From Ornithodoros turicata (lineage: Eukaryota > Arthropoda > Arachnida > Ixodida > Argasidae): a stretch of 64,000 bases of DNA. The stretch is from the NCBI RefSeq assembly GCF_037126465.1, contig NC_088201.1, positions 134,134,052-134,198,051 of the forward strand, in the 5' to 3' direction. Of the stretch, positions 10,492 through 62,510 are shown piece by piece. Within the stretch, counting starts at the first letter, position 1. Each line of letters begins with the position of its first letter. The notes under the pieces were generated by a model. The model did no database searches. It saw only the letters and a program-made list of their open reading frames with translations, and was not told where the DNA came from. Both the position numbers and the translations under genes were made by a program.

Positions 10492-10635
10492 CTGGAAAGC
10501 ATTCTGTGATATGTACTTCTGTGGTCTCAATGGCACCTCCGTCGTAATCTGTGTGGTTTTCTGGTGACACAGGAAAGCTGTGATCTTGAGGTTCTTCCTT
10601 CACATGGATGGTATCACTTCTGTTCACTGTAAAGT
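10492..10635 (-). CDS. KEEP cassette exon, copy 1
   Basis: A 144-nt exon-like unit on the minus strand lies between an acceptor (CTACAG before 10635) and a donor (GTGAGATAATATC after 10492). It opens in phase 1 and closes in phase 1, with no stop. The peptide contains TVNRSDTIHVKEEPQDHSF and, further on, HITECFP. The V-K-E-E tetrad fits the sumoylation consensus psi-K-x-E. The usual ATG position of the family is GTG here, so the unit probably does not start translation in this copy. No flanking exons of the parent gene are identifiable nearby. It could be a functional alternative exon or a duplicated relic; function is unknown. Confidence 0.65.
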
Positions 10636-10641
10636 CTGTAG

Positions 10642-12285
10642 AAAAAAAAAAAGGTTTTCATGTAATCCACTGCAAGAATATAGCCCGCACACTGGGAGTG
10701 GGGCAGACGAGAGCTACTAGCAGGGAAGGGTAATGGACGTATTTTAGTTACCGTTTCTATTTTCGTCACTGCTATATTTTCGTTTCTGTTATCCGTTTCT
10801 GATACCAGCCTTTCAATTTCATTTCCGTTACGTTTCCGTTACTGTTTTCGGTAATGGAAAGGCTGTTACAGAGCTATAGAGCTGCGGGAGGACACCCAGT
10901 CCGGCTCTGTCAGCACAATGTTTTGCCCAAGTGCTGCTTCGGTATCACGCGTACACACTATACAAGTAATTTTACGTCGTTGAGATGTGCACATCCTGCA
11001 AGATTTTCTTAAAGATGTAGGAACATGTATTCAGTCACTCTGAGTGCAGCAACTCAAGATGGGCGTAACCTTCATCCAATGTCGCATTCATAAGCAGATG
11101 CTCTCAGAAGTAAATAATACTGTCATTGCCACGGTGAAATGAAAAAAGTAAAAAAGAAGAACCTGTCAGCCTCGTGCTATGGTGGGGTATAGTCATGTGT
11201 TGATGTCATGGAGTTATGAGGACTGGGACGAGGTAAGCGAGGGATGCACTCTCGAGATTCAATATTATATTATACATACCCAAAGAAAATTTTCAAAAAG
11301 TCTGTAACTAAGTGCTAGCACATAAAATAATATACGATTTCTCGAACAGAGCTGCAAATGACACCAATATTTTCATTTTGTGTGGCATTTAGGAGCCGGG
11401 GTCTCGTAAAGTGCAGGCTCTTTTATCACAATAGGTGCGGGCATTATTTGTTGTATTTACAGATTTTCTACAGTGCTTGCTGTATTGTGGAATGTAAACT
11501 GCGATGTCGCTTTTTGTGCCCATACGAATAATAGCGATTACCGAGTTATGTGTTTCTGTATGTATGTGTAGGTTAGTTAGAAGAATGCATTTTCACAGTT
11601 TTCCAGGACAAAAATACAACATGGACCAAGAAGACATGGACTGTGGAAGAGACATGAAGAGACACACACACACAAAAAAAAAGATTTCACATAGAAAAAA
11701 ATTGTGGTTGGCTTTCCTCATTTGTGTGAAGTGCCCAAAGTGTGGAGAACCAATGACACGTTTGATGTAAAAATTTAAAAACAAATTATATACACAAATA
11801 AAAATATTATAAAATACAGGCTTAACAGACTGGACATCATTGTAATAGTACACTATCTTAATGCCACTTAAAAATACCATAGCAGTAGTACCTGACATCG
11901 ATAAAACACAGATGGACAAACACAGCACCTAAGTCTCACAATGAAGGCACTGCTGGCACAGTTTCATCAACTGCAGATTTTTAATCGTGATAATACTTTT
12001 TAAAAGTAATATAGTGTGTATCGTTTGCCGGGATTTCAGCACATATGAGAGAAATCTCAAGCAGGCAAAATTAATCCACATGCTGAACGCTCCAGTATTA
12101 CTCCTGATCATCATTCAGAGACATAATGCACTGAATTATCACAATAATACCACTGTCAGTATGTAAATTAATAGTCCTCTCCTGATAGGTTACAGCTGAA
12201 AAATAAATGCGTAATACACATGGCTTAGAAATACGTAGATACATGGAGCACTTTTACACAAAGCGGCTCACCCCATCATCCCAAA
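10642..12285. other. No gene recognised
   Basis: Contains a poly-A stretch in the exon 1 upstream region, a degenerate GTTACCGTTTC-like repeat around 10725-10865 and otherwise AT-rich sequence. Open frames around 11504-11928 have no recognisable motif on either strand. Confidence 0.4.
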
Positions 12286-12513
12286 TATTGAAGGAGTACA
12301 GAGGGTCAACCAAAAAATTTTCAGATTAAGATGTCTGATGAAAGTGTATGTGTCATTCTGCTGAATAGAGCGAAAGGTTTTGATGTGTGCAATGTGTTTC
12401 TCCAAAAAAAACTCACATAAACATGGCTCAGCGCGTTCTCCACCATTCATGGTTCCACGCATACCCTTAACTCACCATTCTGGGTATAATGAGGAGGAGA
12501 AGGTATGGTTTTC
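12286..12513 (+). repeat. Dispersed repeat shared with 44551-44727
   Basis: Shares with 44551-44727 the stretches CGAAAGGTTTTGATG, ACTCACATAAACATGGCTC, and CCTTAACTCACCA followed by TCTGGGTATAA, in the same order and strand. No terminal inverted repeat or coding frame was recognised. Confidence 0.6.
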
Positions 12514-13537
12514 TCCAACGGGTTTGCCCAAGTAGCGTCGAGGCGGTTGGGGGAGGGCAACCCCTACGAGTATCTGCTTTGTGAAGCTAACAAGCTAACA
12601 AAAGCCTTTTGAACAAGGGTCTACTGCCTTGACAGACTTCTGGTCAAAGGCAAAAGCAGCCAAAGTGCATCAAATGAAGAGCCAGGAGGGCAAGAGAATG
12701 TTTGTACAAAAGGACATGAAAGACTCTAGTGCTGGAGCCTTCTAATTTGCAGTAAAAATAGCGTGAAACTCTGCACTTAATTTTCTCAAAACAACTTCTT
12801 GCTCTACCTGCTCTGCTTGTGAAACTGATATCTCCACAGCCACTCGCTCTTTATTGATATGGTCTGTTTTCTTACAATCACTGAACCTTCCTAGAGGTCG
12901 TGACATTTTTATTTTTTCAGGTAAATCAATTTATAATGTATGCTATCGTCATACGTTCCTATGCCAGATGTGTCAGCTGCAACTGCATGCAGAAAAGTGA
13001 GAACCAAAAATTTTCATTGTGGAAACCGAAAAAACTAAGAATGACTTCGGAACACACTCCAAGTTCAAGCAGTTGCAATATGCAATATTGCAATATTGCA
13101 ATATTCTCACAGATTGAGATGCCCACTTTTATGGTGAGATTGTAAGCTGGCATATTCACATTTGCCTGCGGCACGCGTCAACCTGTCGTGGTTACGATGG
13201 AAGGGACTGTTCTTTTCTGCGTTTTATTAAATAAATGAACATTCTGCAAAAGAGAATGTCCCCTGCTAATTATGAATTTCCTGATTAAATTAAACACAGT
13301 TGAGATTTAGCACTCTTTACAACTACATTCGTTACTTCAACAAACTGGGTGGTAGCCTGCTTCCACAGACGACTCCCTCCGCTGGTTTTGTCAGCATCTC
13401 CGCCAGATGTGCTAAACGGGTGGGGAAACTGGCATGAAGTAGCAATGGCTAAGGACTTGTACATGCCCCTGCCCCTTGGTTCCAATTCTGGATAAACCAC
13501 TGCCTGCTAGTTGAACAGTTGCAAAGGACTATCTCAC
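12514..13537. other. No gene recognised; short CAATATTG tandem repeat
   Basis: At 13076-13106 the unit CAATATTG is repeated about four times. Nothing else in this stretch supports a gene or element. Confidence 0.4.
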
Positions 13538-13651
13538 CTAAACAGTCAGCAGTGATGAGCTCTTCTGCATCTTCATGGTTTACAGGTAGAGGGGAGATTT
13601 CTTGGGGTTCTTCCTTGATGGAGGTAGAATCCATTCCAGGCATTACTGATT
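13538..13651 (-). CDS. KEEP cassette exon, copy 2 (divergent paralogue, 114 nt)
   Basis: The minus strand shows acceptor CCATAG, then 114 nt open in phase 1 to phase 1, then donor GTGAGATAGT. The peptide reads SVMPGMDSTSIKEEPQEIS and ends ITADCLG at the donor. The core (S-I-K-E-E-P-Q) and the exon phases match the other copies but the rest has diverged and is ten codons shorter. The SIKEE tetrad still fits psi-K-x-E. This is either an older duplicate or a neighbouring class of the same exon type. Confidence 0.55.
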
Positions 13652-14119
13652 CTATGGACAGACAAAAAGTACAAAGCCACACTTTAATTACCTCTCAGTA
13701 CAGCTATAGACCTGTTTCTCTGGGTCAGGTGGCGCGAGTGAGCAGCAACATCAGCACCCCAAATTATGCAACACGCGGTAATTTAGCAGACGACGCGGCA
13801 CTTTCAAATACACGGTCTCGAGTTGTTCGCACTTTTGAAGAAACACCGCTTTTTCTGTGTATTTCTTACATGTTTTGTAGCTTTCATTGGCACCATACCG
13901 TTTCAAACACCATGCAAAACCCGCTAATGAAACAACTGACTGTTGGGCACTTCACTGCAACAGCCCTATTGCAGCACTACCACATGGTATTTTTTAGCAT
14001 AATGGAAGCACATGGTTCTTGTGTTCTCAACATTTACGAGGACCTGACTACCTGTGTGTGATTTAGTTAATCGTAAATTAGCTTGAGTAACTTCGAAACC
14101 TGAGACTGGGTGACAAAAT

Positions 14120-14284
14120 AAACAACAACACAGACAAGGTCTGAAACACAGCTGAAAAATTTACTCAACTACACAAACATATAATCACCTCACCCTTCTG
14201 TCTCATCCACTTGAACTCTTTGTATTTTTGTGTAGTTGAGTAAATTTTGCAGCTGTGTTTCAGACCTTGTCTGTGTTGTTGTTT
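14120..14284. repeat. Foldback element with 57-bp arms
   Basis: The left arm (14120-14176, AACAACACAGACAAGGTCTG and onward) is the near-perfect complement of the right arm (14228-14284), with a spacer of about 51 bp. The transcript would form a strong hairpin. No target duplication was identified. Confidence 0.8.
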
Positions 14285-15527: not shown

Positions 15528-15705
15528 TCCCACAGGGACCTCTAACACCCACCTCCAGTAGAACTGACCAGCCACCACTTAGCACCTCAACCGGTCCCAA
15601 CCCAGTGCATCCTCACCACAGTTTAGTGGCCCTGTTTCGATATGACCACGCCAACCAATTACACGTTCGCAGTATTTGAACGATTTTGTCAGTTCAGGGA
15701 AAGGG

Positions 15706-16320: not shown

Positions 16321-16495
16321 AAGTTTGAGTTCATTGTAGGTAATGCATCCTCAATGTTCCCAACTCCAACAGTTTCCATCTCCATCCTTTGGCGTGTCAC
16401 TATTTAGCTTAGTCTGCGGTTAGCTATGGCTACCATAGTAGTTTACCAAAGTGTGCACAAACACCAGGATGCTGTGTCTGTAACTTGTTAAGGTT

Positions 16496-16654
16496 TGTGG
16501 CGTGTACCTCGGGAGACAAGCAAGGACAACTAGACTGACTGTCGTTGCCAGAAAGAATGCGAAAGCGCACTGGCGCGCAGAAGCGGCCCCGTGAGCTCGC
16601 GTCCCATTTATTGCGCTCGTTGTCGATGGGCGATGCTGATAGGCGGCTCCTACA
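16496..16654 (-). repeat. 3' LTR of the Gypsy element
   Basis: Identical to 20463-20621 except for one base near the outer end (CTCCTACA here, CTGCTACA there). In element sense it runs TGTAG to CCACA and contains an AATAAA signal (plus-strand TTTATTG). Confidence 0.95.
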
Positions 16655-19358
16655 GGGCTCCCCCTCCCCGAAGACGGGTTGACGGAGAATAAGACACAGA
16701 GAGGGGAGTAGCCCAGGTAACGGTGCGGCGAGGCTTGGCGCGAGGTGGGTGAGGGACGAAGACAGAGGACTCTGTGGCAGGTGCAGCAGGGGTGTCGACC
16801 TCCAGGTATGCCGGTTTTACCCTGTAGAGGGAGACCACCTGAGGCCGGGCTTGAATGTCCAGAGTCATGGTCTTGTCGGTGCGAGACAGGACACGGAAGG
16901 GACCGTCGTAATGGGGTGAAAGGGGCTTGCGGGGGGCGTCATGCCGAAGAAAGACGTGTGTGCATGTCTTGAGATCGGGGTGGACGAAGATGACCGGGGA
17001 ATTGGGGGTCCTGGTGGCGGTCGGCGAAAGGCGTCGGAAGAAGCGACGAAGTAACTCGACGTATTCAGACTGCCGAGTTTCGGCTTGGGAGTCGAGCCAG
17101 AAATCGCCGGGGAGGTGCAGTGTCGTTCCAAAGACGAGCTTTGCAGCGGAGCAGGACAGGTCTTGCTTGAGGGCAGAACGAATGCCCAACAGCACAATCG
17201 GTAGATGATCTACCCAGGTGACTTGGGCCTCGCGAGCAATAAGCGATGCCTTGAGCTGGCGATGGAAGCGCTCTACAGCACCGTTAGCGGCGGGATGATA
17301 GGCAGTCGTTCTGATGTGGTGAACTCCCAGCAGGGTCATGAGAGCCTTGAAGAGGGCGCTTTGGAATTGCCTGCCCTGGTCGGTCGTAATTCGAGTGGGG
17401 CATCCGTAGCGGGCGATCCAGGTAGAGACGATCGCACGAGCTACGGTGTCGGCGGTCATGTCTGGGATGGGCACAGCTTCGGGCCACCGGGTATACCTGT
17501 CGACCATGGTAAGAAGGTACCGATAGTCACGGGAGGGTGGTAGGGGGCCGACGATGTCGACATGGAGATGACGGAAGCGGCCGTCGGGCAGGGGAAATTG
17601 GCCGACGGGCGACTTGGTGTGACGGGTTATTTTGGCCCTCTGGCAGGCCATGCAGGATCGTGCCCAGCGTCTCACGTCGGCGTTTATGCCCGGCCAGACG
17701 AAACGGGAACACAACAGACGCTGGGTGGCCCGGATGCCGGGATGAGCAATGCTGTGGAAGCTCTGGAAGGCTGGGAAACGGAGCGAAGGAGGGAGATACG
17801 GGCGCGGCGAATCACCGGAAACGTCGCAGGCGATGTCGCAAGGAGCCATGGGGAGAGGAATGTACTTGAGTTGGAGGGACATCTTGCAGGGGCTAGCGGG
17901 CGTATAATCACGGAGATCTCGATCATTTGCCTGTGCTTCCGCGATGTCGTTGAGAGTGACGCCGGAGACACGGACGGCCTCGATGCGGGAAAGGGCATCC
18001 GCTGCTTGGTTTTCAGCACCGTGCACAAAGCGAATGTCCGTGGTGTACTCAGAGATGTAGCACAGGTGACGAAGGTCGGCAGAGGAGTACGCAGCACGGT
18101 TAGACTTGAACGCAAAGGTCAGAGGCTTGTGGTCTGTGAGCACGTGGAAGGTCTGCCCGTCGAGGAAATGGTGAAAGTGTTTAAGCGCGTAATAGATGGC
18201 CAGGAGCTCTCGACTGAACGTGCTGTACTTTTCTTCAGAGGGCTTGAGTCTCTGGGAAAAGAAGGCCAGTGGGCACCAACCGGATGGGGAATATTGTTGG
18301 AGCACGGCTCCGACGGCATGGGTTGATGCGTCGACCATGAGGCGGAGGTCGGCCGAAGGATCAGGGTGTACCAGTAGGGCGGCATCGGCCAAGGCGGTCT
18401 TGGCCCGTACGAATGCGTCCAGAGCCTCGGGAGAGAGGTGGAAAGGCTTTGCCGCACTCCCAGAATTGCGCAGCGTATCAGTGAGAGGGCGAAGAATGTC
18501 GGCACAGTGCGGGATGAAGCGGCGATGAAAGTTGATGAGTCCCAGGAATTCGCGCAGTTTCCGAAAGGAAGTGGGGGCGGGGAACTGCTGGATCGCGTGC
18601 ACTTTGGATGGGAGAGGCCGAATACCCTCCGGGGTTACCTCGTGTCCCAGGAACCGCACGGACGACTGGCCGAAAACGCATTTTGCGGGGTTAAGGACAA
18701 GGCCATGCTCGTCCAACCTGCGGAACAGCTGGCGTAGATGTTCTTCATGTTCACCGGGAGTCTTGCTGGCGACCAGTATATCATCGAGATATGCGAAGGC
18801 GAAAGGGAGCCCGCGCAGAACCTCGTTGATAAACCTCTGGAAGGTCTGCGCCGCGTTACGCAGACCGAAGGGCATGCGGATGAACTCGAAAAGGCCAAAT
18901 GGTGTTATGATTGCCGTTTTTGGGATGTCTTCCGGTGCCACAGGGATTTGATGGTAGGCCTTTACGAGGTCGATCGTGCTGAAGGTGGTCGCGCCAGCGA
19001 GGCCTAGGGCGAAGTCGTGAAGGTGTGGAAGGGGATACTGATCTGGGACAGTAGAGGCGTTCAAAGCTCTATAATCGCCGCAGGGGCGCCAATCCCCTGA
19101 AGACTTCGGAACCATATGGAGCGGTGAAGACCACGGACTGGACGATGGTCGAATCAAACCTAGCTGCAACATATGGTCGAACTCTTGGCGGGCGATCTTG
19201 AGGCGGTCGCCGGCGAGTCGGCGTGGCCGAGCCGTGACAGGGGGACCCGTCGTCACAATGGTGTGGGTGACAGCATGCTTCGGGGTGACAGCCAAGTTGC
19301 AGGGCTTCGCGACGGAAGGGAAGTCAAGCAGAATGGTGGAATACGGGGACGAGGGCAA
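16650..19358 (-). CDS. pol: Gypsy Pol: reverse transcriptase, RNase H, integrase
   Basis: 902 residues open from the first methionine; coding sequence extends upstream to the protease junction. Reverse transcriptase (about 60-230) has [12 protein letters not shown] (D130) and YLDD (190-193). RNase H (about 335-460) shows D343, E384, D409 and D454 in MVDAST, SRELLA, VLTDHK and AADALS. The integrase zinc domain has H535, H539, C569 and C572. The catalytic core has D601 (HVDIVG), D660 (TTDQG) and E696 (GAVERFH). A GPF module ([12 protein letters not shown]) follows near 817, and the frame ends in the polypurine tract. All catalytic residues are present, so this part looks intact. Open frames on the opposite strand are shadows. 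Confidence 0.95.
16655..16675 (-). promoter_or_regulatory. Polypurine tract
   Basis: In element sense a purine run containing GGGGAGGGGGAG directly precedes the 3' LTR, where plus-strand DNA priming occurs in LTR retrotransposons. It overlaps the end of pol. Confidence 0.7.
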
Positions 19359-19425
19359 AACTGTCCTGATGCTCGAACTATGCTGGGAAGACGGGACGCC
19401 AGAGATTGTGAGGCCGGTTGTGGAG

Positions 19426-19632
19426 TCAGCAAGCTTCTTGCGTGTGATACTTATGTCGAGACCGAAGTGGTGAAGGAAGTCGGCTCACCTCAGCGCCGGT
19501 GTCTACCAAAAAACGGTGGCCTGCGAGTCGGTCAATGACGTAGAACAGGCGGCTTCCTGGGGGGCCGTGGTCGAAGGCCGCCTCTATCGACCGGCCTCCG
19601 CGTTTCCCGTCCAGGAACAAGGTCGTGTGCAC
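19426..19632 (-). pseudogene. Gypsy aspartic protease remnant, centre deleted
   Basis: This frame carries LFYVIDRLAGHRFLVDTGAE with the catalytic D-T-G triad. Immediately afterwards the sequence jumps. In the pol frame the next residues are [18 protein letters not shown], which belong at the far end of a retropepsin domain (the GADFL-type segment). The middle of the protease, including the flap, is therefore missing, and the frame changes at the junction. Autonomous processing of Gag-Pol is not expected from this copy. Confidence 0.75.
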
Positions 19633-20447
19633 TTCAGTGCCTTGTCGCCGTATTTCCTGTGATACCAGCAGAGGCCGTTGGGCTGGCTCTGTGCATCAGA
19701 CTGTGCGGAAGAAGAGCGGCGGCGGCCGCGGGACGGTGAACATAAAGTCCGAGGGCGGTGAGTGAGATCAGAGCGGAGACTTTCCACAGCTTCAGACAAC
19801 CGCGCAATCTGCTCCTGAATGGCGCGGGTAGAGCTGTCAGTGGGAGGAGGGGCGTGCGGGGTGCGGTGGGAAACAGCGGCGATGGAAGGCGAAGAGTACT
19901 CAATGATCCTATCCGCGAGTTGGGCGAAGGCCTTGAGGGAGAGATCTTCGGAGCCGGCCAAGACCATTCGTACTTGCTGCGGAAGCCTCTGGAGGAATAG
20001 CTCACGTAATATGGGGTGCTGATCGTCCGTGGCGCCTCCGAGCAGTTGTTGCATACGATGGAGAAGCTGCGATGGCTTGCGATCGCCCAGTTCCTCGCCA
20101 GAGAGGAGCTGACGGATCCGTGACTGCTCTGTGCACTCAGCACACGAAAGAATCGCTTCCTTGAGCTGTTGGTACGGATTTTCGGCAGGTGGGGAGGCCA
20201 GAAGGTCGTCTACCTGGTCGGCAACGTCGGGAGGTAAGGCCGAAACGACGTTCAGATACATCGTAAGGGGTGATGTGATTCGGCGAAGGGCGAAGCGAGC
20301 TTCGACCTGCGAGAACCATGCACGCGGGTTTTTCGTCCAGAACGGCGGCAGGTGGACTTCTGTGCCAACGGCGCCTACTGTGGCCCCTGTCAACGCAGGC
20401 GGTGCAGAAGGAGGCGGCTCCAAAGGAGCGTCTGGAGAAACGTTCAT
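19584..20447 (-). CDS. gag: Gypsy Gag-like protein
   Basis: I choose the ATG at 20447 (MNVSPDAPLEPPPSAP), directly after the primer-binding site, giving 287 residues. A proline-rich start is followed by the capsid-like region (PPFWTKNPRAWFSQVEARF near residue 45, then LRELFLQRLPQQVRMVL near residue 150), which is the usual arthropod Gypsy Gag layout. A cysteine/histidine knuckle (CWYHRKYGDKALKC) lies near the C-terminus. In relatives Gag and Pol form one frame. Here the frame runs into a stop soon after CTRPCSW, while the protease remnant is in another frame. That is either a frameshift mutation or a -1 frameshift site; the former is simpler. Confidence 0.85.
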   Translation of the reverse strand: MNVSPDAPLEPPPSAPPALTGATVGAVGTEVHLPPFWTKNPRAWFSQVEARFALRRITSPLTMYLNVVSALPPDVADQVDDLLASPPAENPYQQLKEAILSCAECTEQSRIRQLLSGEELGDRKPSQLLHRMQQLLGGATDDQHPILRELFLQRLPQQVRMVLAGSEDLSLKAFAQLADRIIEYSSPSIAAVSHRTPHAPPPTDSSTRAIQEQIARLSEAVESLRSDLTHRPRTLCSPSRGRRRSSSAQSDAQSQPNGLCWYHRKYGDKALKCTRPCSWTGNAEAGR

Positions 20448-20451
20448 TGTT

Positions 20452-20460
20452 GGGTCACCA
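20452..20460 (-). promoter_or_regulatory. Primer-binding site
   Basis: In element sense TGGTGACCC lies two bases inside the 5' LTR. It is complementary to a tRNA 3' end GGGTCACCA. The gag start codon follows within four bases. Confidence 0.75.
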
Positions 20461-20462
20461 GT

Positions 20463-20621
20463 TGTGGCGTGTACCTCGGGAGACAAGCAAGGACAACTAG
20501 ACTGACTGTCGTTGCCAGAAAGAATGCGAAAGCGCACTGGCGCGCAGAAGCGGCCCCGTGAGCTCGCGTCCCATTTATTGCGCTCGTTGTCGATGGGCGA
20601 TGCTGATAGGCGGCTGCTACA
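20463..20621 (-). repeat. 5' LTR of the Gypsy element
   Basis: Matches the 3' LTR at 158 of 159 positions by eye. Short for a Gypsy LTR. It starts with TG and ends with CA in element sense and is followed by the target duplication GGTT. Confidence 0.95.
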
Positions 20622-20911
20622 GGTTTAAGAGCTACATGAAGTGTGCACATGCATATGTTCCGCCTAACAAGCACAGGGGCAGCACTACACCGTGCAAGCG
20701 TATAAACAAAATCTCGTTTTATTCCAAATTCTTTGTTAAATTATTTGAGAGAGTAGCTTCGTTCTGTTTGGTGATAAAACTCCCATGGGCTACAGAATAG
20801 GTCACCAGGGGCAACATTAGGACCCTGCGCTACACTTATGAAAGGTCAGTCGATCAGTCGGCTTGTCTGTTTGAAACTGAAGGAGTCATGCCCTCTTTTT
20901 TTTTTATTATA

Positions 20912-22934: not shown

Positions 22935-23350
22935 TGTATATATTGTTAATTTTAAAGCTGTACTGTGCTGCGGTACAAAAAGAGAATTGTCATATCTGCA
23001 TTTGAATATATAGGAATAGTTTGTAAGTACTTTGCTTGTTGACATTTACATATATGTGCATGAGGTCCCAACATTGGTAATTGACGGAAAATGTAAATAA
23101 AGTGATTTATTTGCTTACCAAACAATACACAAGCACTGTCTTTTCTAGTGAGATATTCTCTGTTCACAAGACATAAAAGTTGCAAAGTTAAAGGGGCACA
23201 ATGACGCTAGAGTGTAGCATTGTTTTTTGCCACTTCACATATATTCACTGTTATTTGTGTGCACATGTATGACCAGGAAGGTACAGCATGTGCATAAAAA
23301 ATAATTTCGCATACAAGTATGTATAATTGTACTTCATGTGTGATGGTTAT

Positions 23351-24329
23351 TAGGGGTGTGCGAATATTCGAGTTCTCGAATTCGAATCAAATATCAAATG
23401 CTCGAACTATTCAATTCGCGAATCGAATATCCAATATTCGATTTTTCGAATATTCGACTATTCCCCGAATATGAACGACACAACCCGAAAGTGGGCTTCA
23501 CCTGATGCTTCCGTGCATGAGGTGAAACCTGCTTTACGAAATTGCCCTTGCTGCAGGACCAACACAGGCGGGACAGTGTTTAGATTAAGATAACATTATC
23601 CAAAGTTAGTTTTGTAGACATCGCCTGTGGAAGGGGTGGTGCCACTCCCACATGTAGTTTAGCAGTGCCGATGAGGGACTTTGATTTGATGTCTGTGAGG
23701 TTGCCTTTAAAAAGTTAGGACTCTTGAATAATGACTACAGCCCACGAACAAGAAGGGTGTCCTAGAGAGAAACAAGAGAGAAACTGATGTTCTGAGGCTG
23801 GAACAACATGGAAGGGACGTTTTCATCGTTGATTCAAGGGTGTCCTAAAGATGTCCTTTACGTCTACAATTTCAGTAGTGCAACTTCCTAGGGCGAGTGC
23901 AAAGAAACTACAGGGTGTTCATGGCAAAGCTGAGGCAGGATGCCAATTCGTTTGTTTCCCAAATGGCCTGTGGTTGTCTGAAACAATTACAGCCCCATCC
24001 GTATAACATGCTACTGCCTGACATAAAATTTTGAAATGAAAATAACCACTCCAGTACTCCAGTAAGTGTGGGCTCACCTGAAAAGCAGGAAGCAGTCTCA
24101 TGTAAAATTAAAGAGTAGGGGCTTATAGCAGAAGAATTGCACGTATCTCTTGCGACAGTTAATGTCACAAAAATTACACTAAAGCCATGGGCTACAAAAT
24201 GGAAACTTTTAGTGCGAAAGTCGCATACTGTAAATTTTGCACGAATATTCGATTCGGTATTTTGAATTTCTTCCTCCATTCGATTCGATATTCGATTCGA
24301 CTTAAAATATTCGGATTCGCACAACCTTA
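23351..24329. mobile_element. hAT-like MITE (TAGGGGTGTGCG family) with 8-bp target duplication ATGGTTAT
   Basis: ATGGTTAT lies at 23343-23350 and 24330-24337. The ends are TAGGGGTGTGCGAATATTCG and the complement of CGGATTCGCACAACCTTA. Both ends are filled with TTCGAATATTCG palindromes. The interior matches 9598-10466 and 54088-54972 in inverse orientation and contains the family hairpin around 23488. Confidence 0.9.
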
Positions 24330-25618: not shown

Positions 25619-25762
25619 CTGGAAAGCATTTGGTGATATGTACCGCTGTGGTTTCGATGATACCTCCGCTGTAGTCTCTGTCGTTGTCTGGTGATACAGC
25701 AAAGCTGTGGTCCTGAGGTTCTTCCTTCACTTGGATGGAATCTCTTCCGTTCATTGACCAGT
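25619..25762 (-). CDS. KEEP cassette exon, copy 3
   Basis: A 144-nt minus-strand unit lies between acceptor TTTAAAG and donor GTGAGACAATATC, open in phase 1 to phase 1. The peptide begins DWSMNGRDSIQVKEEPQDHS and ends in HITKCFP. ATG is present at the third codon of the unit. The reading frame also continues past the donor (ETISRLTVDGNCSTLC) to a stop, as in several other copies. The flanking 380 bp upstream is duplicated at 53.74-54.08 kb next to copy 8. Confidence 0.65.
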
Positions 25763-26427: not shown

Positions 26428-29009
26428 CAGTTGAACTCCTTTATAACGAAACTCAGGAGACTCAGAAAAAAATTTGTTCTCAAGGTAATTTCGTTAAAGA
26501 GGATGCGGACTCGATGAAGGTTCATATCAGCAGGTAAAGAGGACCGTGATTAGTGCTAAGCTATCACAATTACCATAGCCTGTCTTGGAGTGACATTAGA
26601 TCTGCAGAGAACGACTATATATGATGCACAAAATCAAGTTTCACGAGTGCATCACAAAGCTTCCACAAGAGCAACAAAAGAAAAACGACCGCTACTTTTC
26701 TACTATTTTCAGTTACGGATAGCCTTACAGTTACAAATATAGTATAAACGTTACAAAATAAAGCTTGTAAGTCAACCAAAGTGCTATCAAAGAGCACCCA
26801 TGGCACCGCTACCAATGAAACGACAGCGCCATTTGTGTTGTTTACGACGGTGCTGCACAAATACGAAGATTGGTGGCACTAGCGTCGCTCGTAGTAGTTT
26901 CGGTATCATAGAATTACACATGGATTACGAAAGAATCACGAGAGTGCTAGTTTTGCCTATGGACATTTATTTTCATGTGAAGAAGTCAGTCAACTTTTTC
27001 TGCACCAGGCCCCTGACAGTGCTTTGCATGCAGAACATTCTCAAAATGTCCAAGTCTTTAAACTGCGTTTCGGGAACGCAAGAGCAGAAGGAAAGAAAAC
27101 ACTGCAGTTAGTCAATTAGTCGGGTAGCTTCGACAGCCGATACCATTACGGGTTCAGATTCCTCTTCATCATCACTTTCTTCCGCTGGCCCATGCTTGTC
27201 ATTTTCCACCTCCGCACATATGTCCACATCTGATGGTTGTGGGCGCACAATCACATGGTCGTCCGCAGCTACGAAGTCCTCTGGAGCGATAATTTTCAAG
27301 AATGTCGGAAGCACTTACGTAGGCTCCCTATGCCTCGAGGAAGGATTCATTGTTGTCAGGGCACAGGGCTACTTCCTGTGGTGACTCATCCACGGGCGAT
27401 GGCAGTACGAATCCAGCCTTCCGCCAACAGTTTTCGATAACCTCCCTCTTTACACTCCACCAAGCGCCAGTTATCATTTCCACTACTTGTTTGATGTCGA
27501 TCTTTGTAGGCTTGGAGACCTTGCATTTGTTGTTCAGCAAGATCCTGTCGATCATCCGTCATCTGTAGTGAGACTTCGCTGAGCGGATTATGCCCTGGTC
27601 GAGTGGTTGGAGAGTAGAAGTGCAGTTCGGAGGAAAAATCAGCACTTTCACATGGCTTATTTTTGGAAGCTTGGAATGGGCAGAGCAATTGTCCACGATG
27701 AGCACGATGTGTTTGCCCTTGGCTTTCTCGTCTGGTCCAGTTGAAACAGCCATTCCGTGAAGATCGATGCCGACATCCACGCATTCTTGTTGAAGAAATA
27801 GTCAGTGGGCCGGCTGTGCATGTGCATGAAGCAGTGCGGTTTGCTGGCTCTTCCGATCACAAGAGGCCTCAACTGAAATGTCCCAGTCATATTGCAACAA
27901 AACAGAACTGTTATCCTACCCCTACACTTCTTGCTGCCTTTACACTTATCCCCCTTGACCGTCAATGTCTGCTCGGGTAGGACCTTGAAGAAAAGCCCGG
28001 TCTCGTCGGCGCTGAAGATGTCGTCAGCATCATATTCAGACAGTACCTTCACCATTTCCTTTTCTCTCCAGCCCTGGGCAACGTCTTGCGTAGCTGATTT
28101 TTCTTCATCGCTAACTCCTTTGAATATGACATCATGCCGTGAACGGAACGCGTGCAGCCAGCCTTGAGTTGCCATAAACTTGTCATCCACGCAGTAGATG
28201 ACAGCGAAGTGTCGTGCCTTTGCGCAGAGCATGGGGGCCAGATACGGGGATGTCCTGAGCTCTTACCTTTAAGAACCACTTGAACATGGCCTTATCGACG
28301 TCTTCGAAGTCTGCAGCTTTTATTCGTTTCCACACGGGCGCACCGTCGTAGTTTTCGTAGTACTCTCGCTGTATCTTGTCGCGGTCCTTGATGAATGTTG
28401 ACAGCGTAGATGCACTTATGCTAAAGTCCATGGCAATGTCACCTTTTTTCCGTCCGCTGTCCACTTCCTCGAGGGTGGAAATATTTTCTTCCAGGGTAAA
28501 CTGTTGCCGCTTTGCAGTTGTCCTTGGAGTCATAGCAGCCACAATGCCTTACAGCAGTCACAGCATGTGGTCGAGAAATGTGGTTTCAGTGTTGCACGGG
28601 GTCTTATAGAGGCCACATGACGGCATGCATGGACCTATGCATGAGGTCTTACGACGTCATGTGACGGACGCCAAGGTCAAGAAAACCAAATTTACGGGTC
28701 ACCTGGTTGTGGTGGTCAGTGCCCGTGGGAAGGCCGCTCCCCGCCCCGCGTTCACTTATCTCGGATTAGCGGTGCGCGGGGGCCATTATTATCGACAAAA
28801 GTAAGGAAAATTTCCGTTATATGGGTTAACTCTTAGTGGAACAGACTGGGAAATCGCTTCATTAATTTAATACGTTCATTCTAAAGAATTTTGTTGTAAA
28901 TGTTCGAAAATTACATTAGTACCTATGGGAGTATTACGAGACTGCAAAGAAAAATTCATTGTAGCAGTTTTTTTGTTAAGAAGGTGTTCGTCCTAAAGGA
29001 GTTTGACTG
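26428..29009 (-). mobile_element. Full-length Tigger/pogo element with decayed transposase
   Basis: Ends CAGTTGAACTCCTTTATAAC (left) and the complement of the right end (CAGTCAAACTCCTTTAGGAC) form the terminal repeat, flanked by TA at 26426-26427 and 29010-29011. Length 2582 bp. The transposase lies on the minus strand. Confidence 0.9.
27108..28542 (-). pseudogene. Tigger/pogo transposase pseudogene, four or more frameshifts
   Basis: The start at 28542 reads MAAMTPRTTAKRQQFTLEEN, an N-terminal HTH ending near STLSTFIKDRDK. Successive frames supply the CENP-B HTH (GWLHAFRSRHDVIFKG), DDE strands (FSADETGLFFKVLP; IVDNCSAHS; LQPLDQGIIRSAKSHY), a middle region (WWSVKREVIENCWRKAGFV) and an acidic tail ending at 27108. 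All three catalytic aspartates are visible, but the gene changes frame near 28230, 27780, 27560 and 27320. The order and spacing are otherwise those of a full-length transposase, so this is an aged copy and not a deletion derivative. Confidence 0.9.
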
Positions 29010-29402: not shown

Positions 29403-29799
29403 CCATCACAAAACGTACGTGCAAACGCGAAATGCAACTGGCACCGAGAGACGAGACTCACAAATATTTACATAATTAAACTTACAATACATGACGTTCA
29501 CATCAGAAGGCGGCAAAAACCTAGTAAGAACGAATGCTGTTTGACCGCATGATTCTGCGTGGCTTAGTTTTTTTTATTATAATTCAATGACATGTTTCCT
29601 GGGACACCCTGGAGACTCCATACCAAGTTTATAACACTCCTCACCTGTATAGTCGCCCTTGACGATTTCATTGCTGTTTCCATGATTTCCTGGTAAAGTA
29701 AAGTTTCCCGGACGCTTTGCCTTCACGCAATAACCAACAGATGTTGCATCTTCTAAAGGCAGAAACAAAAAATTTAATATCCAAAAATTTAATATAAAA

Positions 29800-34883: not shown

Positions 34884-35015
34884 CTGAAAAGCATTCGGTG
34901 ATGTGTACCCCCGTGGTTCTGTTGGTACCTCTGTTGTTTTCAGGTGACATGGAAAAGCTGTCCTCCTGAGGTTCTTCTTTCACGTGGATGGAATCACATC
35001 TGTTCATTGTTAAGT
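34884..35015 (-). CDS. KEEP cassette exon, copy 4 (132 nt)
   Basis: Acceptor TTTTTCAG on the minus strand, then 132 nt open in phase 1 to phase 1, then donor GTGAGGTAATATC. The peptide starts DLTMNRCDSIHVKEEPQEDS and ends HITECFS. Compared with the 144-nt copies it lacks four codons after SPENN, so the deletion kept the frame. The frame stays open past the donor for about 90 further codons. ATG is present at the family position. Confidence 0.7.
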
Positions 35016-40855: not shown

Positions 40856-40999
40856 CTGGAAAGCATTCAGTGATATGAACCTCTGTCGTTTCAGTAGCAC
40901 ATCCGCGATAATCTTTGTGGTTTTCTGGTGAAACAGAGAGGCTGCTGTCCTGAAGTTCTTCCTTCACATGGATGAAATCCCTCACATTCATTGTTAGGC
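40856..40999 (-). CDS. KEEP cassette exon, copy 5
   Basis: Minus-strand acceptor TTTTTTATAG, 144 nt open in phase 1 to phase 1, donor GTGAGGTAATATG. The peptide runs LTMNVRDFIHVKEELQDSS and ends in EVHITECFP. Proline of the KEEP core is leucine here, but V-K-E-E is kept. No stop or frameshift. This is the minus-strand copy nearest the centre of the divergent arrangement. Confidence 0.65.
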
Positions 41000-48500: not shown

Positions 48501-48618
48501 TATGTGTAGCATCTGGTACCACTATATCTTTTTATTAGTCGAAGTAGTTTTATCAAGATGCTTGTGTCGATGGTAGACAATATAAAGGCAACTTTTTATT
48601 GGTTTAAGGACGAGTATA

Positions 48619-48748
48619 ATGGATTCCATCCATGCAAAGGAAGAGCCTCGAGACAACAGCTTCTCAGCGTCACCAGAACACTACAAAGATTACCACGGAT
48701 GTATTACTACTGAAACCGCAGAGGTTCATATCACCGAATATTTACCAG
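48619..48748 (+). CDS. KEEP cassette exon, copy 6 (5' end damaged)
   Basis: From the ATG at 48619 the frame reads MDSIHAKEEPRDNSFSASPE and ends EVHITEYLP at the donor GTGAGATAATATC, still in phase 1. Upstream, the region that should hold the acceptor (GGTTTAAG) is pyrimidine-poor. Using that AG would give a 140-nt exon whose frame does not fit phase 1, so several bases have been lost near the start. The psi position of the K-E-E core is alanine. This copy may be dead, or may use the ATG as a start. Confidence 0.55.
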
Positions 48749-50245: not shown

Positions 50246-50356
50246 ACTTAACAGTGAATGGAAGCGATTCCAGCCATGTGAAGGAAGAACATCAAGACGA
50301 AAGCTTTTCCGTGTCACCAGAAAACCGCAGACATTACCACAGAGGTACCATCAGAG
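50246..50356 (+). CDS. KEEP cassette exon, copy 7 (111 nt, new donor)
   Basis: A strong acceptor (TTCTTTTTTCTTGTTTTCAG) precedes 111 nt open from phase 1 to phase 1, with DLTVNGSDSSHVKEEHQDES near the start. The exon breaks off after HRGTIRG, where all other copies continue for eleven more codons, and a donor AGAG/GTATGT follows directly. The sequence after the break (ATGTAGTGACACCAACTACT) is the one found downstream of copy 4, so a deletion has joined mid-exon to downstream intron. Phase is preserved. GTG replaces ATG at the family position. Confidence 0.6.
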
Positions 50357-54087: not shown

Positions 54088-54972
54088 GAAATCCGAATAT
54101 TGTAGGTCAAATCGAATATCGAATCGAATGGAGGAAAAAATTCTGCATACCGAATCGAATATTGAATATTCGTGCAAAATTTGCAATATGTGACCCTCGC
54201 ACTAAGTTTCCATTTTGTAGCCCATGGCTTTAGTGTAATTTTTCTTGCATTAACTGTCACAAGAGAGACATGCAATTCTTCTGTTTAAAGCCCCTACTCT
54301 TTAATTTTGCATGAGTGCTTCCTGCCTTTCAGGGGAGCCTACACTTACTGGAGTACTGGAGTGGTTACCTTCATTTCAGAATTTTATGTCAGGCAGTAGC
54401 ATGTTATACGGATGAGGCTGTAATTGTTTGACAACCACAGGCCATTTGTGAAACAAACGAACTGGCATCCTGCCTCAACTTTGCCATGAACACCTTTTAG
54501 TTTCTTTGCAGTCGCCCTAGGAAGTTGCACTACTGAAATTTTAGATGTAAAGTACATCTTTAAGACACACTTCTTGTTCATGGGCTGCAGTCATTATTCA
54601 GGAGTCCTAACTTTTTAAAGGCAACATCACAGACATCAAATCAAAGTCCCTCGTCGGCACCGCTAAACTGCATGTGGGAGGGGCGCCACCCCTTCCACAG
54701 ACGACGTCTACAAAACTAACTTTGGATAACTTTATTTTAAACTAAACACTGTCCCGCCTGTGTTGGTCCTGCAGGAGGCTTCACCTCATGCGAAGTGTCA
54801 GGTGAAGTCATGAAGTGTCAGGTGAAGCCCACTTTCGGGTTGTGTCGTTCATATTCGTGGAATAGTCGAATATTCGAAAAATCGAATATTGGATATTTGA
54901 TTCGCAAATCGAATAGTTCGAGCGTTTGATATCCGATTCGAATTCGAGAACTCGAATATTCGCACACCCCTA
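54088..54972. mobile_element. hAT-like MITE (TAGGGGTGTGCG family), left end truncated
   Basis: The right end CGCACACCCCTA and the body match 9598-10466 in the same orientation. The left end begins at AATCCGAATATTGTAGG without the terminal TAGGGGTGTGCG, and the expected 8-mer ATTATATG is found only on the right. The right end lies 33 bp before the acceptor of cassette copy 8. Confidence 0.8.
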
Positions 54973-55005: not shown

Positions 55006-55149
55006 ACTTGACAATGAAGAGAAGGGGTCCCGTCCATGTGAAGGAAGAACCTCAGGACAACAGCTTCTCTGTATCACCAGAAAACCACAGAGACTACCAC
55101 GGAGATGTCACTAAAACCACAGCAGTGCATACCTCCGAATGCTTTGCAG
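55006..55149 (+). CDS. KEEP cassette exon, copy 8
   Basis: A strong acceptor (CTTTCCTTTTTTTCAG), 144 nt open in phase 1 to phase 1, donor GTGAGACAGTATC. The peptide begins DLTMKRRGPVHVKEEPQDNS and ends HTSECFA. ATG is at the family position. The open frame continues past the donor for about 58 codons (ETVSILIVDEYGSTLCW and on). Upstream flank is duplicated at copy 3; a hAT MITE has landed 33 bp upstream of the acceptor. Confidence 0.7.
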
Positions 55150-56395: not shown

Positions 56396-56420
56396 AACAT
56401 AAAACAATCCGAGATCAGCT

Positions 56421-59384: not shown

Positions 59385-60282
59385 GGTGTCTCAAAGCGAA
59401 AGGAAGTCAGTGCGGGGGGACGGGCACTGAAAGAAGGGGCAAGAAAGCATGTGCCATTGTCTCCTTTCCTTACTTCATCTTCAGATTGGTGCTGGTGGGG
59501 TCAGCGCTTTGCCGTGTCTTCTTTGCCACTGACAGTAGCACATTACCTTGCTTTTTTTTCCCGGGACATCAGCACAAAATTATTCATTGCAGGTAGAACT
59601 CAGAGAGAACAACTTTGCTGGTATATGGATCACTCTTATATGTGGCACTCAGTGGAGGGAAAACACGGGTGCTAAGAAACTTCGTTGTATTGAGAGGTTC
59701 ACCATATCATGAGTTCACACTACATTGATGTTTGAGTGTAGTTCGCGAAGAACTAAGTCGGACTTTGATATAACGAAGCTTCCGGGGAACACTGTTTCTT
59801 TCGTTCTACCGAATATTTTGTGGTATCAAGCCTGCCAAAATATGGCAGGCAATTGGAGAAGGGAACACGTCCAAATTATTTTGCTGTATCGCAAAGTTTG
59901 TTGTACAATAGCATTTCATTACAGTATCAAGATTTGCGTGTACATATTTTCTTTAATTGTTATTCTTATTTTCAGTACGTGATTTTGAAAGGCACCTTAT
60001 TTATTTCTCTCGGTGTGTCAAGTGTAGTTTTTAAATTCTGCGCATACTGTCCCACTCTACAATAACTACACCACTCCTGATTTTTGTGTGTATTTTTACT
60101 GTACAATCTATTAGAGCATTTTATAGTAATTATGCCCTGATTTTTTTTGTCGATGTGGCACTTCATGATGTGGTCTAAAGTCAATATGACCCACATCTTG
60201 ATTTGAGTTTGAGACCCCTGGTATATAGTGAGCAGGACCACTCAAGACGAGTACACGTCTTCATACGTGCAGTACTGTTTTC
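59385..60282. other. No gene recognised; possible Tigger 5' end
   Basis: 59670-59800 has GAAACTTCGTTGTATTGAGA and GATATAACGAAGCTTCCGG, typical Tigger subterminal sequence, probably the 5' end of the preceding minus-strand pseudogene. The rest is AT-rich without motifs. The stretch 60258-60282 is part of the duplicated intron block. Confidence 0.4.
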
Positions 60283-61053
60283 TAGAGCTGTGCGAATAGT
60301 TTACAAGTGTATTTCACTTACACTGCGAATCGAATCTGAGTAATTTCATCAGATGGGAAATCAAATTCGAATAATCAGAAAAGGCCCAATTTGAATAATT
60401 TCGAATACCTCATGGTGAAATATTTTGTGGTTTTGTGCTCATAAGATGATGTTCTGCTGTAAACATGTGGGCCTTTTCAACCAGCATAACCTCTGTGTTG
60501 TGTATGGTAAACTGCAATTGTGGGATGAACTGCATTCAGAGTTAGTCAACATGTTCCATGCAGCCTGCTTTGTGTGCATCTCCTCATTTCTATGTTTACA
60601 TTGTGAATTTCCCGTACTTTTTTTTTGAAGCTGCACATGTTGCCATCTGTTACTAAACGTAACTCTTAAAGTTGGGAGTACATTTACTGGAACTTGCATT
60701 GCCCAGAGTATAGTGTTGACCATGAGCTCTCAAAATTTGTAGACTTCAGTGACAGAATATTGTAAACAGCATAAAGCGGGCTTCACCTGACGCTCGAGAG
60801 TAACGAGGTGAAGCGACTTGCAGAATGGAGCCACACACCAAAAGAGGAATGGCAGTAACGTGAAGTGGGCTTCACCTAACTCTTGGATGTAATGAGGTGA
60901 AGCCCGGATGCAGAATGGTGCTAACATTACTTCGCTTTTTTACTACTAGAAACATATTCGTATGTTGTGTATATAAAGTATGTTGTGAATAGCATTAGAT
61001 AGCATCAGGTATTCGATTAGTGTTCGAAATTTTCGAATATTCGCACATCACTA
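60283..61053. mobile_element. hAT-like MITE with 8-bp target duplication CTGTTTTC
   Basis: CTGTTTTC lies at 60275-60282 and 61054-61061. The ends are TAGAGCTGTGCGAATAG and ATTCGCACATCACTA. The interior holds two hairpins of the GCTTCACCT/AGGTGAAGC type near 60780 and 60870. The paralogous block at 34.8 kb reads GCAGTACTGTTTTCTCGTTT without the insertion. Confidence 0.9.
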
Positions 61054-61114
61054 CTGTTTTCTCATTTCTGCATTGCCAAACAGCTGCTTTGGAGATTCCA
61101 AACATTGTAGCAAT

Positions 61115-61774
61115 TAGGGTTGCCACCTTTTGTAGTGAAAAATACCGGCCGAGGGAGAGGGAAAGGAGGAAATGCTCATAGGAAAGGAAAAATGGGTGAG
61201 GGGTGGACGAGAACAGAGAGAGAGAGTGAGAAAGAGCGAGCATGCTTGCTCAAGATAATACAAGGAAATGTAGTTCCTGTGAGTGGCTGCAACATTGATG
61301 CTAGAAACTGCTATAAACAGGCGCGAACGCTACACTGGATCATATTGAAGCAACCGGATTGGGCTGCCACTTACTTTGAAAAACGCATTGACACAGACAA
61401 ACCCTTCTCTGCAGGTGGAGATCACATGAAGGTTGTTTACAGCTTAAGTGCTAGCTGGCTCGACACAACCGCCAACAGCTCCGCACAACCACTTATCTTG
61501 TCCCTTCCGAACACAAGACTTAATGAATAACAATGATAATAATAATAATAAATAATAACTAAGAAAACGACTGGTGACTGAGGAGTTGGGTCTGTGCTTC
61601 AAATTTATTCGAGCTGGAGTGGAATGTTGAAGAGAAAGCCCTGCAAAAGCCCCTATGAAGGGTCTTGAGCTACAAACCGGCAAAAGTCTGCCAGTAGCAC
61701 CTCCCTACCGACAACGGGCAGAGCGAGCAAATACCCGACCGTGCCGCTATAACAGCGGCCTGGTGGCAACCCTA
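61115..61774. mobile_element. hAT-like MITE (TAGGGTTGCCACC family) with 8-bp target duplication GTAGCAAT
   Basis: GTAGCAAT lies at 61107-61114 and 61775-61782. The ends TAGGGTTGCCACC and GGTGGCAACCCTA are perfect inverse repeats. The paralogous block at 34.7 kb has TAGTAATCTCCTT uninterrupted. Contains an (AAT)n run near 61538. Same family as 42456-42904 and 15739-16153. Confidence 0.92.
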
Positions 61775-61782
61775 GTAGCAAT

Positions 61783-62366
61783 CTCCTTGTGTTTCACACT
61801 GTCAGCTCATGAAGCAGCTTCCCAGGCTCTTCTCTCTTCAACATACATACTGCCCGATTGCATGGGCAAAAATGTTTCGTGTTTTTTTTTATTACTGTTG
61901 TCACTGTGAAAAAAAAACGTCTCTCCAGCTATTTAACCTATTCCTTACAAAGCTGATGATCTGCATTGTGGCATCAAGTCACGGGACAGTGTGCCCGCAC
62001 GGTTGAAACTGCCGCTTGTACACTGATCATGTTGAGGGAAAATACGTAGGGGGTGATATATTTGAGCACATTTTCATACTTTTAAACCAAACATGTGAGT
62101 CTGCTTCCCTATCTGCCACTTTCTCGTACGCCACCACTCTGAATGTGAGCATTACATTCTCCAGAATCAAGATCCTGAGACTGAGGGACACACAAACAGC
62201 ACGACATAAAGGACATGCATGTCCATCATCACCAGCTTGCCTGCTCAATTGACGTCTTGTTTGTGACCACATTCTTGCACTACATTTTTGAGGTTCTTGC
62301 ACTACAGTGTGTTGATAGTGGATTATGTGAATTATGTGAAAGTAACGGTTTTTTGCGTTCCTGTAG
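61783..62366 (+). repeat. Duplicated intron block and upstream flank of cassette copy 9
   Basis: 61783-61900 (CTCCTTGTGTTTCACACTGT, CTTCAACATACATACTG, TGCATGGGCAAAAATGTTT) continues the block seen downstream of copy 4. 62020-62160 (TGATCATGTTGAGGGAAAAT, CATTTTCATACTTTTAAACC) parallels the upstream flanks of copies 3, 7 and 8. Confidence 0.65.
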
Positions 62367-62510
62367 ACTTTGCAATGAACAGGAGGGGCTCCATCCATGT
62401 GAAGAAAGAACCTCAAGACAACAGCTTTTCCGTGTCAACAGAGAACCTAGGAGATTACCATGGAGGTACCATCAAGGCCATGGACGTGCAAACCAGTGAA
62501 TGTTTTCCAG
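62367..62510 (+). CDS. KEEP cassette exon, copy 9
   Basis: Acceptor TTTTTTGCGTTCCTGTAG, 144 nt open in phase 1 to phase 1, donor GTAAGGAAATATC. The peptide begins DFAMNRRGSIHVKKEPQDNS (first residue split across the junction) and ends QTSECFP. V-K-K-E still fits psi-K-x-E. ATG at the family position. The frame continues past the donor to KEISRLAINENGSTLH and a stop, as in copies 3, 4 and 8. Confidence 0.7.

What the first reader, a model, noticed from the sequence alone, without database searches (positions are those of the whole stretch)
10492..62510. Nine copies of one symmetric exon cassette carrying a conserved V-K-E-E-P core, scattered over 52 kb
Seen in sequence: nine units share acceptor position, donor position and a peptide of the form D-L-T-M-N, IHVKEEPQD, SVSPEN, HITECFP. 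Five are 144 nt, three others are 132, 114 and 111 nt, and all eight are multiples of three, open and phase 1-1, so any could be included, skipped or swapped without breaking the frame. Established: psi-K-x-E is the sumoylation consensus, and K-E-E-P motifs are common near the N-terminus of zinc-finger proteins. Inference: this is either a bank of alternative exons feeding a zinc-finger gene outside the window, or a graveyard of duplicated N-terminal exons. Preservation of frame and splice signals in most copies, amid heavily decayed transposons, favours some selection or recent duplication.
Basis: partly seen in the sequence, partly recalled or inferred. Interest (0 to 1): 0.88.

Follow-up and report, generated by a model that had tools for sequence, protein, structure and literature searches.

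The report
Twin tick zinc-finger genes' N-terminal exon arrays
The repeated short exons in this stretch of soft-tick DNA look like the front-end building blocks of two mirror-image zinc-finger genes whose DNA-binding parts lie just outside the stretch, and a sibling gene suggests that such blocks are strung together in one protein, most of them carrying a likely SUMO attachment site.

Summary
The window lies in Ornithodoros turicata (soft tick; contig lengths agree). In 100 kb fetched on each side each set points at its own C2H2 exon of about 11 fingers, 32 kb left and 29 kb right of the window, both with phase-1 acceptors that fit the cassettes' donors. There are two cassette types (A about 144 nt, B about 111 nt), 14 copies found. 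Their order mirrors between the arms, and trees of the A copies reject separate expansion in each arm (AU p 0.0022 and 0.00008): an array-bearing gene was duplicated head-to-head. A sibling protein maps exactly to a start-bearing cassette plus two 1-1 cassettes (114, 114, 120 nt) joined to a finger exon. Purifying selection is detectable but weak (omega 0.57, p 0.003); between arms exons differ as often as aligned flanks. Two or three copies are decaying. Tandem inclusion is favoured over mutually exclusive choice; expression of these two genes was not testable.

The parts
10492..10635 (-). cassette c10m, type A, 144 nt, phase 1-1, VKEEPQ, no Met
   Evidence: other-contig copies
13538..13651 (-). 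cassette c13m, type B, 114 nt, phase 1-1, IKEEPQ
   Evidence: mirror partner at 67021-67134 (+), outside the window
25619..25762 (-). cassette c25m, type A, 144 nt, phase 1-1, VKEEPQ
29645..29752 (-). cassette c29m, type B, 108 nt, open, AG/GT kept, SUMO motif lost (probably decaying; not in the finding)
34884..35015 (-). cassette c35m, type A, 132 nt, phase 1-1, VKEEPQ
40856..40999 (-). cassette c41m, type A, 144 nt, phase 1-1, VKEELQ; most 5' cassette found in the leftward arm
48602..48748 (+). cassette c48p, type A, 147 nt, open; acceptor AG lost (TTG), psi residue lost (AKEE)
50246..50356 (+). cassette c50p, type A, truncated: 3' part and homologous donor lost; 111 nt only with a non-homologous GT
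55006..55149 (+). cassette c55p, type A, 144 nt, phase 1-1, VKEEPQ; a transposon copy ends 33 nt upstream
62367..62510 (+). cassette c62p, type A, 144 nt, phase 1-1, VKKEPQ
9588..10466 (.). 879-bp DNA transposon copy (ends TAGGGGTGTGCGAAT, 8-bp duplication GTTATATT at 9580-9587 and 10467-10474; hAT-like by recall) 25 nt beyond the donor end of c10m; missing at the homologous site of contig C150, and by alignment of C246

Best explanation
Two divergent (head-to-head) C2H2 zinc-finger genes of the soft tick Ornithodoros turicata arose by inverted duplication of one gene that already carried a multi-exon N-terminal array. Each gene has a row of short symmetric (phase 1-1) exons of two types, A and B, followed 12-15 kb downstream by one exon with about 11 zinc fingers. 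Each intact cassette encodes a 35-50 residue segment, presumably unstructured (not tested), around a psi-K-E-E-P-Q-like core that fits the sumoylation consensus. Most likely working: an A cassette with an ATG after 8 nt of exon can supply the start, as in the sibling gene; further A and B cassettes are spliced in tandem between it and the finger exon; because every junction is phase 1, any subset gives an open protein, so the number of SUMO-type motifs can vary by exon skipping, local duplication or decay without disturbing the DNA-binding half. Shown: positions, phases, two finger exons, mirror order, sibling-gene architecture. Inferred: tandem inclusion at this locus, skipping, sumoylation, recruitment of repressors.
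For: Finger exons at window coordinates 93410-94629 (+) and about -33222..-32000 (-), found in 100 kb fetched on each side; both start after TTTCAG with two bases before the first whole codon, i.e. phase 1. 14 cassettes found in 264 kb, each oriented towards the finger exon of its arm; 12 of 14 keep AG, homologous GT and an open frame, 12 of 14 keep psi-K-x-E. Mirror order c41:c48, c35:c50, c25:c55, c13:c67, c10:c79, ZF:ZF; the AU test accepts the mirror topology (p 0.219, 0.201) and rejects monophyly of each arm (p 0.0022, 7.5e-5) (the 9 A cassettes only). Pooled dS of five mirror pairs 0.34 (0.23-0.49), against 0.58 for non-mirror A pairs and 0.49 for the finger exons, the last at the upper edge of that interval. 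Finger exons dN/dS 0.32 between arms; left copy against contig C46 0.23. Codon model on 9 A cassettes: omega 0.57, p 0.0034 against 1. c10 against its C150 copy: 2 changes in 144 nt, both synonymous, against 37 in 653 flank positions. Other loci: C4:20.55 Mb has two 108-nt 1-1 cassettes and an 11-finger exon whose best acceptor candidate (one of three listed) is phase 1; C1:156.04-156.06 Mb has four K-E-E-P stretches, splice-bounded frames being called for two. The sibling protein P0096, named by its source 'zinc finger protein 596-like isoform X2 [Ornithodoros turicata]', maps to C1:182.678-182.695 Mb: exons of 114, 114 and 120 nt, the first with ATG after 8 nt, joined to the finger exon, all junctions phase 1; the joined exons reproduce its first 156 residues. 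Six of nine A cassettes, and B cassette c13, also have an in-frame ATG after exactly 8 nt.
Against: No transcript or annotation of these two genes was seen. Between arms, exons (112 of 654 positions) do not differ less than alignable flanks (49 of 305), p 0.71, although flanks were counted only where they align locally. B exons against copies on other contigs: 14 of 333 against 21 of 599 flank positions, not slower (three of six copies counted, see full report). Terminal-branch omega is not significantly below 1 (p 0.07). No leader exon was identified; I only looked for sequence shared between the arms. The right gene has a broken fourth finger and the left one broken first two. The c35:c50 and c25:c55 pairings have weak support (UFBoot 64-67 and 48-64). 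c62, c-9, c-20 and c29 have no mirror partner.
Confidence: 0.82

Rival explanations
1. Mutually exclusive choice: each transcript takes one A cassette (and perhaps one B), as in Dscam-type exon clusters, so the array is a menu of N-termini for one finger array.
For: Near-identical exon size and splice sites, symmetric phase, and an ATG near the 5' end of 7 of 9 A cassettes (six after exactly 8 nt, c48's after 17), which would let each act as first coding exon.
Against: The sibling gene joins three cassettes in one protein. c10, c-9 and c67 are intact and have no Met, so they need a coding exon upstream. No mechanism for exclusivity was sought.
Confidence: 0.2
2. Graveyard: duplicated N-terminal exons left behind, of which one or few per arm are still used.
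For: c48 lost its acceptor, c50 its 3' part, c29 its motif; side copies carry a 20-nt and a 10-nt deletion; exon and flank divergence are equal between arms; B exons do not evolve more slowly than flanks against their side copies.
Against: 12 of 14 copies keep frame and both splice signals; a neutral simulation on a star tree gives P = 0.02 that all 8 A copies other than c50 stay open; omega below 1; c10 exon conserved against other-contig copies.
Confidence: 0.2
3. Each cassette belongs to its own, separate zinc-finger gene in a cluster.
For: Zinc-finger genes often cluster, and this genome has many (180 matches, from 102 scored of 2238 candidates).
Against: No zinc-finger exon was found between cassettes: the pattern search of the 264 kb gave only two open frames with fingers, both beyond the arrays, and two generic finger queries found none in the window.
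Confidence: 0.03

Closest known systems
KRAB C2H2 zinc-finger genes (KRAB-A and KRAB-B exons)
   Same: Short separate exons encode an N-terminal effector region in proteins with a finger cluster; KRAB A and B lie in separate exons and are variably spliced (PMC5509000, passages seen).
   Different: No KRAB match in the 2 of 14 cassettes scanned against Pfam; the core is a psi-K-E-E-P motif; the exons are present in several copies per gene.
ZAD C2H2 proteins of arthropods
   Same: N-terminal module of C2H2 proteins expanded in arthropods (PMC5509000, passages seen).
   Different: No Pfam match (2 of 14 cassettes) and only one near-invariant Cys instead of two Cys pairs (11 of 14 cassettes aligned).
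Xenopus finger-associated repeats (FAR) (recalled; no paper seen, one search listed none on it)
   Same: Tandem K-E-E-P-type repeats ahead of C2H2 fingers (recalled).
   Different: Vertebrate; exon structure and homology not checked.
Dscam-type clusters of mutually exclusive exons (recalled)
   Same: Tandem duplicated exons of one size and phase.
   Different: Exclusivity not shown; the sibling gene includes several cassettes at once.
Clustered protocadherin variable exons (recalled)
   Same: Bank of variable 5' exons ahead of a constant 3' part.
   Different: Here 13 of 14 cassettes have AG acceptors, mostly with pyrimidine-rich tracts, so they look like internal exons, not promoter-driven first exons.

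Membership tests
C2H2 zinc-finger gene | Tandem C2H2 fingers in one exon | tested here: met
   11-12 fingers per exon by pattern in both arms; Pfam zf-H2C2_2 and zf-C2H2 for the left exon (the right was not scanned)
C2H2 zinc-finger gene | Cassettes spliced to the finger exon | not testable with these tools
   Phase and orientation fit; seen only in the protein of a sibling gene
KRAB zinc-finger gene | KRAB domain | tested here: not met
   0 Pfam families for the 2 of 14 cassettes scanned
ZAD zinc-finger gene | ZAD with two cysteine pairs | tested here: not met
   0 Pfam families for 2 of 14 cassettes; one near-invariant Cys among 11 aligned
Tandem duplicated symmetric exons | Homologous exons, same phase, same strand, in a row | tested here: met
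   12 of 14 copies intact and phase 1-1, each arm on one strand
Mutually exclusive exon cluster (Dscam type) | Only one copy per transcript | not testable with these tools
   No RNA; the sibling protein includes three
Protocadherin-type variable first exons | No acceptor; own promoter | tested here: not met
   AG acceptor in 13 of 14; pyrimidines 9 to 17 of 17 in positions -20 to -4 of those 13. Promoters not tested
Sumoylation substrate | psi-K-x-E (psi taken as V, I, L, M or F) | tested here: met
   12 of 14 cassettes
Sumoylation substrate | Lysine modified in cells | not tested
   Needs protein work

The most novel reading that the evidence does not exclude
A zinc-finger superfamily of ticks tunes its output by exon-encoded SUMO valency: arrays of interchangeable phase 1-1 psi-K-E-E-P cassettes, duplicated, lost and spliced in varying number ahead of a fixed finger array, give each gene a ladder of isoforms with one to seven SUMO sites. 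The design recurs at several loci of this genome and was copied whole in an inverted gene duplication here.
Probability: 0.3. Interest if true: 0.7.

Novelty: new variant of a known kind. Interest (0 to 1): 0.5.

Why it matters
Effector modules of lineage-specific zinc-finger families (KRAB, SCAN, ZAD) are described from vertebrates and insects. If confirmed, ticks would have their own: a short SUMO-motif segment whose copy number is set by exon duplication and, perhaps, splicing. The mirror-image pair is a natural replicate: two arrays with a common ancestor, some exons kept and some dying, so which copies are used can be tested directly with RNA data.

Tried and rejected
Rejected: one array feeding one gene (strands differ); separate gene per cassette (no finger frame found between them); independent expansion in each arm (AU test); promoter-driven first exons (acceptors present). 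Led nowhere: protein database with seven joined cassette peptides (432 candidates, none at E<=1) and with a profile of 11 cassettes (40 candidates, none at E<=10); PDB with one cassette; Rfam and tRNA scans of the window; a leader exon, sought only as sequence shared by the arms; DNA-contact residues diverging faster than other finger positions (14 of 40 against 20 of 100, p 0.08; 10 fingers intact in both arms). Literature: no paper of the library holds the string IHVKEEPQD; some searches gave only listings with starts of abstracts, none on this kind of array; PMC5509000 was seen as passages. Evidence that turned out weak or contrary: exon against flank rate between arms and B exons against side copies. 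Rows dropped: c13, c29 and the other B cassettes were not in the A tree or codon model; c50's last non-homologous codon was left out of the codon alignment; c48, c50 and c29 were not in alignment A1; of six B copies on other contigs the exon/flank count uses three (L033, L034, L035), leaving out L036 (10-nt deletion) and L037, L038 (near duplicates from C246; 4 of 114 and 7 of 111 exon changes, 6 of 157 and 10 of 219 flank changes).
Full report
OBSERVATION. A six-frame search and a profile of the cassettes recover the nine units at the places given, with the lengths given: minus strand 10492-10635, 13538-13651, 25619-25762, 34884-35015, 40856-40999; plus strand 48602-48748, 50246-50356, 55006-55149, 62367-62510. 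All are multiples of three and open with phase 1 on both sides, but 48602-48748 has TTG in place of the acceptor AG and 50246-50356 has lost its 3' part, its GT being non-homologous. A tenth unit, 29645-29752 minus, has AG, GT and an open frame but has lost the K-E-E-P core.

SOURCE. The window is C1:134134052-134198051 of a 1.07-Gb assembly. Contig C1 is 235,596,939 bases, the same length as the longest contig listed for proteins that their source names Ornithodoros turicata (P0001, P0051, P0096), so the organism is taken to be this soft tick.

SURROUNDINGS. I fetched 100 kb on each side and joined it with the window for searching (264 kb, of which 200 N). A pattern search gave two open frames with C2H2 fingers: 93343-94626 plus and -33219..-31981 minus (window coordinates; genomic = 134134051 + coordinate). 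One search places them at C1:134227466-134228671 and C1:134100832-134102052. Four further cassettes lie in the flanks: 67021-67134 and 78631-78774 (+), -8977..-8870 and -19988..-19878 (-). Each of the 14 cassettes points towards the finger exon of its own arm. Both finger exons begin after TTTCAG with two bases before the first whole codon, so the acceptor is phase 1, as the cassettes' donors require.

TWO TYPES. Profiles separate nine A cassettes (c10, c25, c35, c41, c48, c50, c55, c62, c79) from B cassettes (c13, c67, c-9, c-20 and the relic c29). The two types find each other only weakly (E 0.0015 or worse). In an alignment of 11 of the 14, invariant columns include K13, E15 and Q17 of the core (c48, c50 and c29 left out). 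psi-K-x-E is kept in 12 of 14; the two without it are c48 (broken acceptor) and c29. Seven of nine A cassettes have an in-frame ATG near the start: six after exactly 8 nt of exon, c48 after 17; B cassette c13 also has one after 8 nt. c10, c-9 and c67 are intact yet have none, so they must be read from an upstream exon.

HISTORY. From the centre outwards the order is A41, A35, (B29), A25, B13, A10, B-9, B-20, ZF on the left and A48, A50, A55, A62, B67, A79, ZF on the right. Trees of the nine A cassettes pair c41 with c48 (UFBoot 93 exon only, 99 with flanks), c10 with c79 (91, 80), and more weakly c35 with c50 (64, 67) and c25 with c55 (64, 48). The AU test accepts the mirror topology (p 0.219, 0.201) and rejects each arm being its own clade (0.0022, 7.5e-5). 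Among the B cassettes c13 is closest to c67 (dS 0.30 against 0.64 and 1.00 to c-20 and c-9). Pooled dS over five mirror pairs is 0.34 (bootstrap 0.23-0.49); between the finger exons it is 0.49, at the upper edge of that interval; for non-mirror A pairs 0.58. The array therefore existed before an inverted, head-to-head duplication of the gene; c62, c-9, c-20 and c29 have no partner and reflect later gain or loss. Further copies lie on other contigs: finger exons on C46 (96% and, partial, 97%), A10 on C150 and twice on C246, B copies on C150, C246 and C46. Two 9.5-kb stretches of C246 are inverted copies 99.4% alike, so that contig may be an assembly artefact.

SELECTION. Finger exons: dN/dS 0.32 between arms (404 codons) and 0.23 between left and C46 (17 synonymous, 15 non-synonymous changes). 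A cassettes: omega 0.57, likelihood-ratio p 0.0034 against 1; c48 and c50 1.29 against 0.49 for the rest, p 0.10; terminal branches against 1, p 0.07. Mirror pairs pooled omega 0.48 (0.31-0.76), single pairs from 0.22 (c10:c79) to 1.17 (c25:c55). c10 against C150: 2 of 144 changes, both synonymous, against 37 of 653 in flanks (p 0.017); against C246: 0 of 124 against 42 of 655 (p 0.0006), although the C246 copy has a 20-nt deletion; the C150 and C246 copies are 98% alike and not independent tests. A neutral star-tree simulation gives P = 0.02 that the 8 A copies other than c50 all stay open. Against: between arms, exon positions differ as often as aligned flanks (112 of 654, 49 of 305, p 0.71), only gap columns being fewer (12 against 23); B exons differ from side copies as often as flanks (14 of 333, 21 of 599, p 0.59; three of six copies counted). 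Constraint is thus clear for the fingers, moderate for A cassettes over the long run, and not visible for B cassettes recently.

SAME DESIGN ELSEWHERE. Weak genome hits that cluster on one strand proved to be further arrays: C4:20.55 Mb, two 108-nt 1-1 cassettes followed by an 11-finger frame whose most likely acceptor (CATTTCAG, one of three AG candidates listed) is phase 1; C1:156.04-156.06 Mb, four K-E-E-P stretches on one strand, splice-bounded 1-1 frames being called for two. The best evidence on use is P0096, 'zinc finger protein 596-like isoform X2 [Ornithodoros turicata]'. Its N-terminus maps to four exons at C1:182.678-182.695 Mb. Reading and joining the DNA: an exon of 114 nt with pyrimidine tract, AG, ATG after 8 nt, KEE motif and phase-1 donor; two KEE cassettes of 114 and 120 nt, phase 1-1; then the finger exon with phase-1 acceptor. 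The join reproduces the first 156 residues of the protein. Six A cassettes here have the same layout as its first exon, ATG after 8 nt. Whether that gene model rests on RNA I could not see.

MECHANISM. I take the array to be a chain: a start-bearing cassette, then further A and B cassettes in varying number, then the fingers. Phase 1 at every junction makes loss, gain or skipping of any cassette harmless to frame, which fits the coexistence of damaged copies (c48, c50, c29, side copies) with intact ones. The motif suggests sumoylation and, by analogy with other C2H2 repressors, recruitment of silencing factors; this last step is inference from the motif alone.

NOVELTY. C2H2 genes with exon-encoded N-terminal modules are a known kind (KRAB-A/B exons; PMC5509000, passages). 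This module, its copy number and its mirror-image duplication did not appear in my searches, which cover open-licence papers only and were seen as listings. I rate it a new variant of a known kind.

Noticed in passing
window 9588-10466, 54090-54972, 23349-24317: A ~880-bp hAT-like (by recall) transposon family; two copies show 8-bp target duplications by eye. One copy lies 25 nt beyond the c10 donor, one 33 nt before the c55 exon. The c10 insertion is absent from the homologous site on C150.
   Followed up: partly
window 16495-20623 (-): Ty3-type element with reverse transcriptase and integrase frame between 162-nt end repeats 99.4% alike: a recent insertion, so not all transposons here are old.
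   Followed up: no
window 6580-7743 (+) and 27660-28262 (-): Transposase frames with HTH_Tnp_Tc5 and DDE_1 matches (pogo/Tigger type by recall).
   Followed up: no
G000:C246 (L030, L031): Two 9.5-kb stretches in 10-kb pieces that start 47 kb apart are inverted copies at 99.4% identity; possible assembly artefact or recent palindrome.
   Followed up: partly
G000:C150:32500-32800 (L036): A second copy of the c13 cassette with a 10-nt deletion and stops: cassettes are still being duplicated and lost.
   Followed up: partly
finger exons at window coordinates 93410-94629 and -33222..-32000: The two arms have lost different fingers (right the fourth, left the first two); contact residues differ in 14 of 40 places in the ten fingers intact in both.
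   Followed up: partly
G000:C1:164.59-164.66 Mb: Further weak cassette-like hits on one strand, perhaps another array.
   Followed up: no
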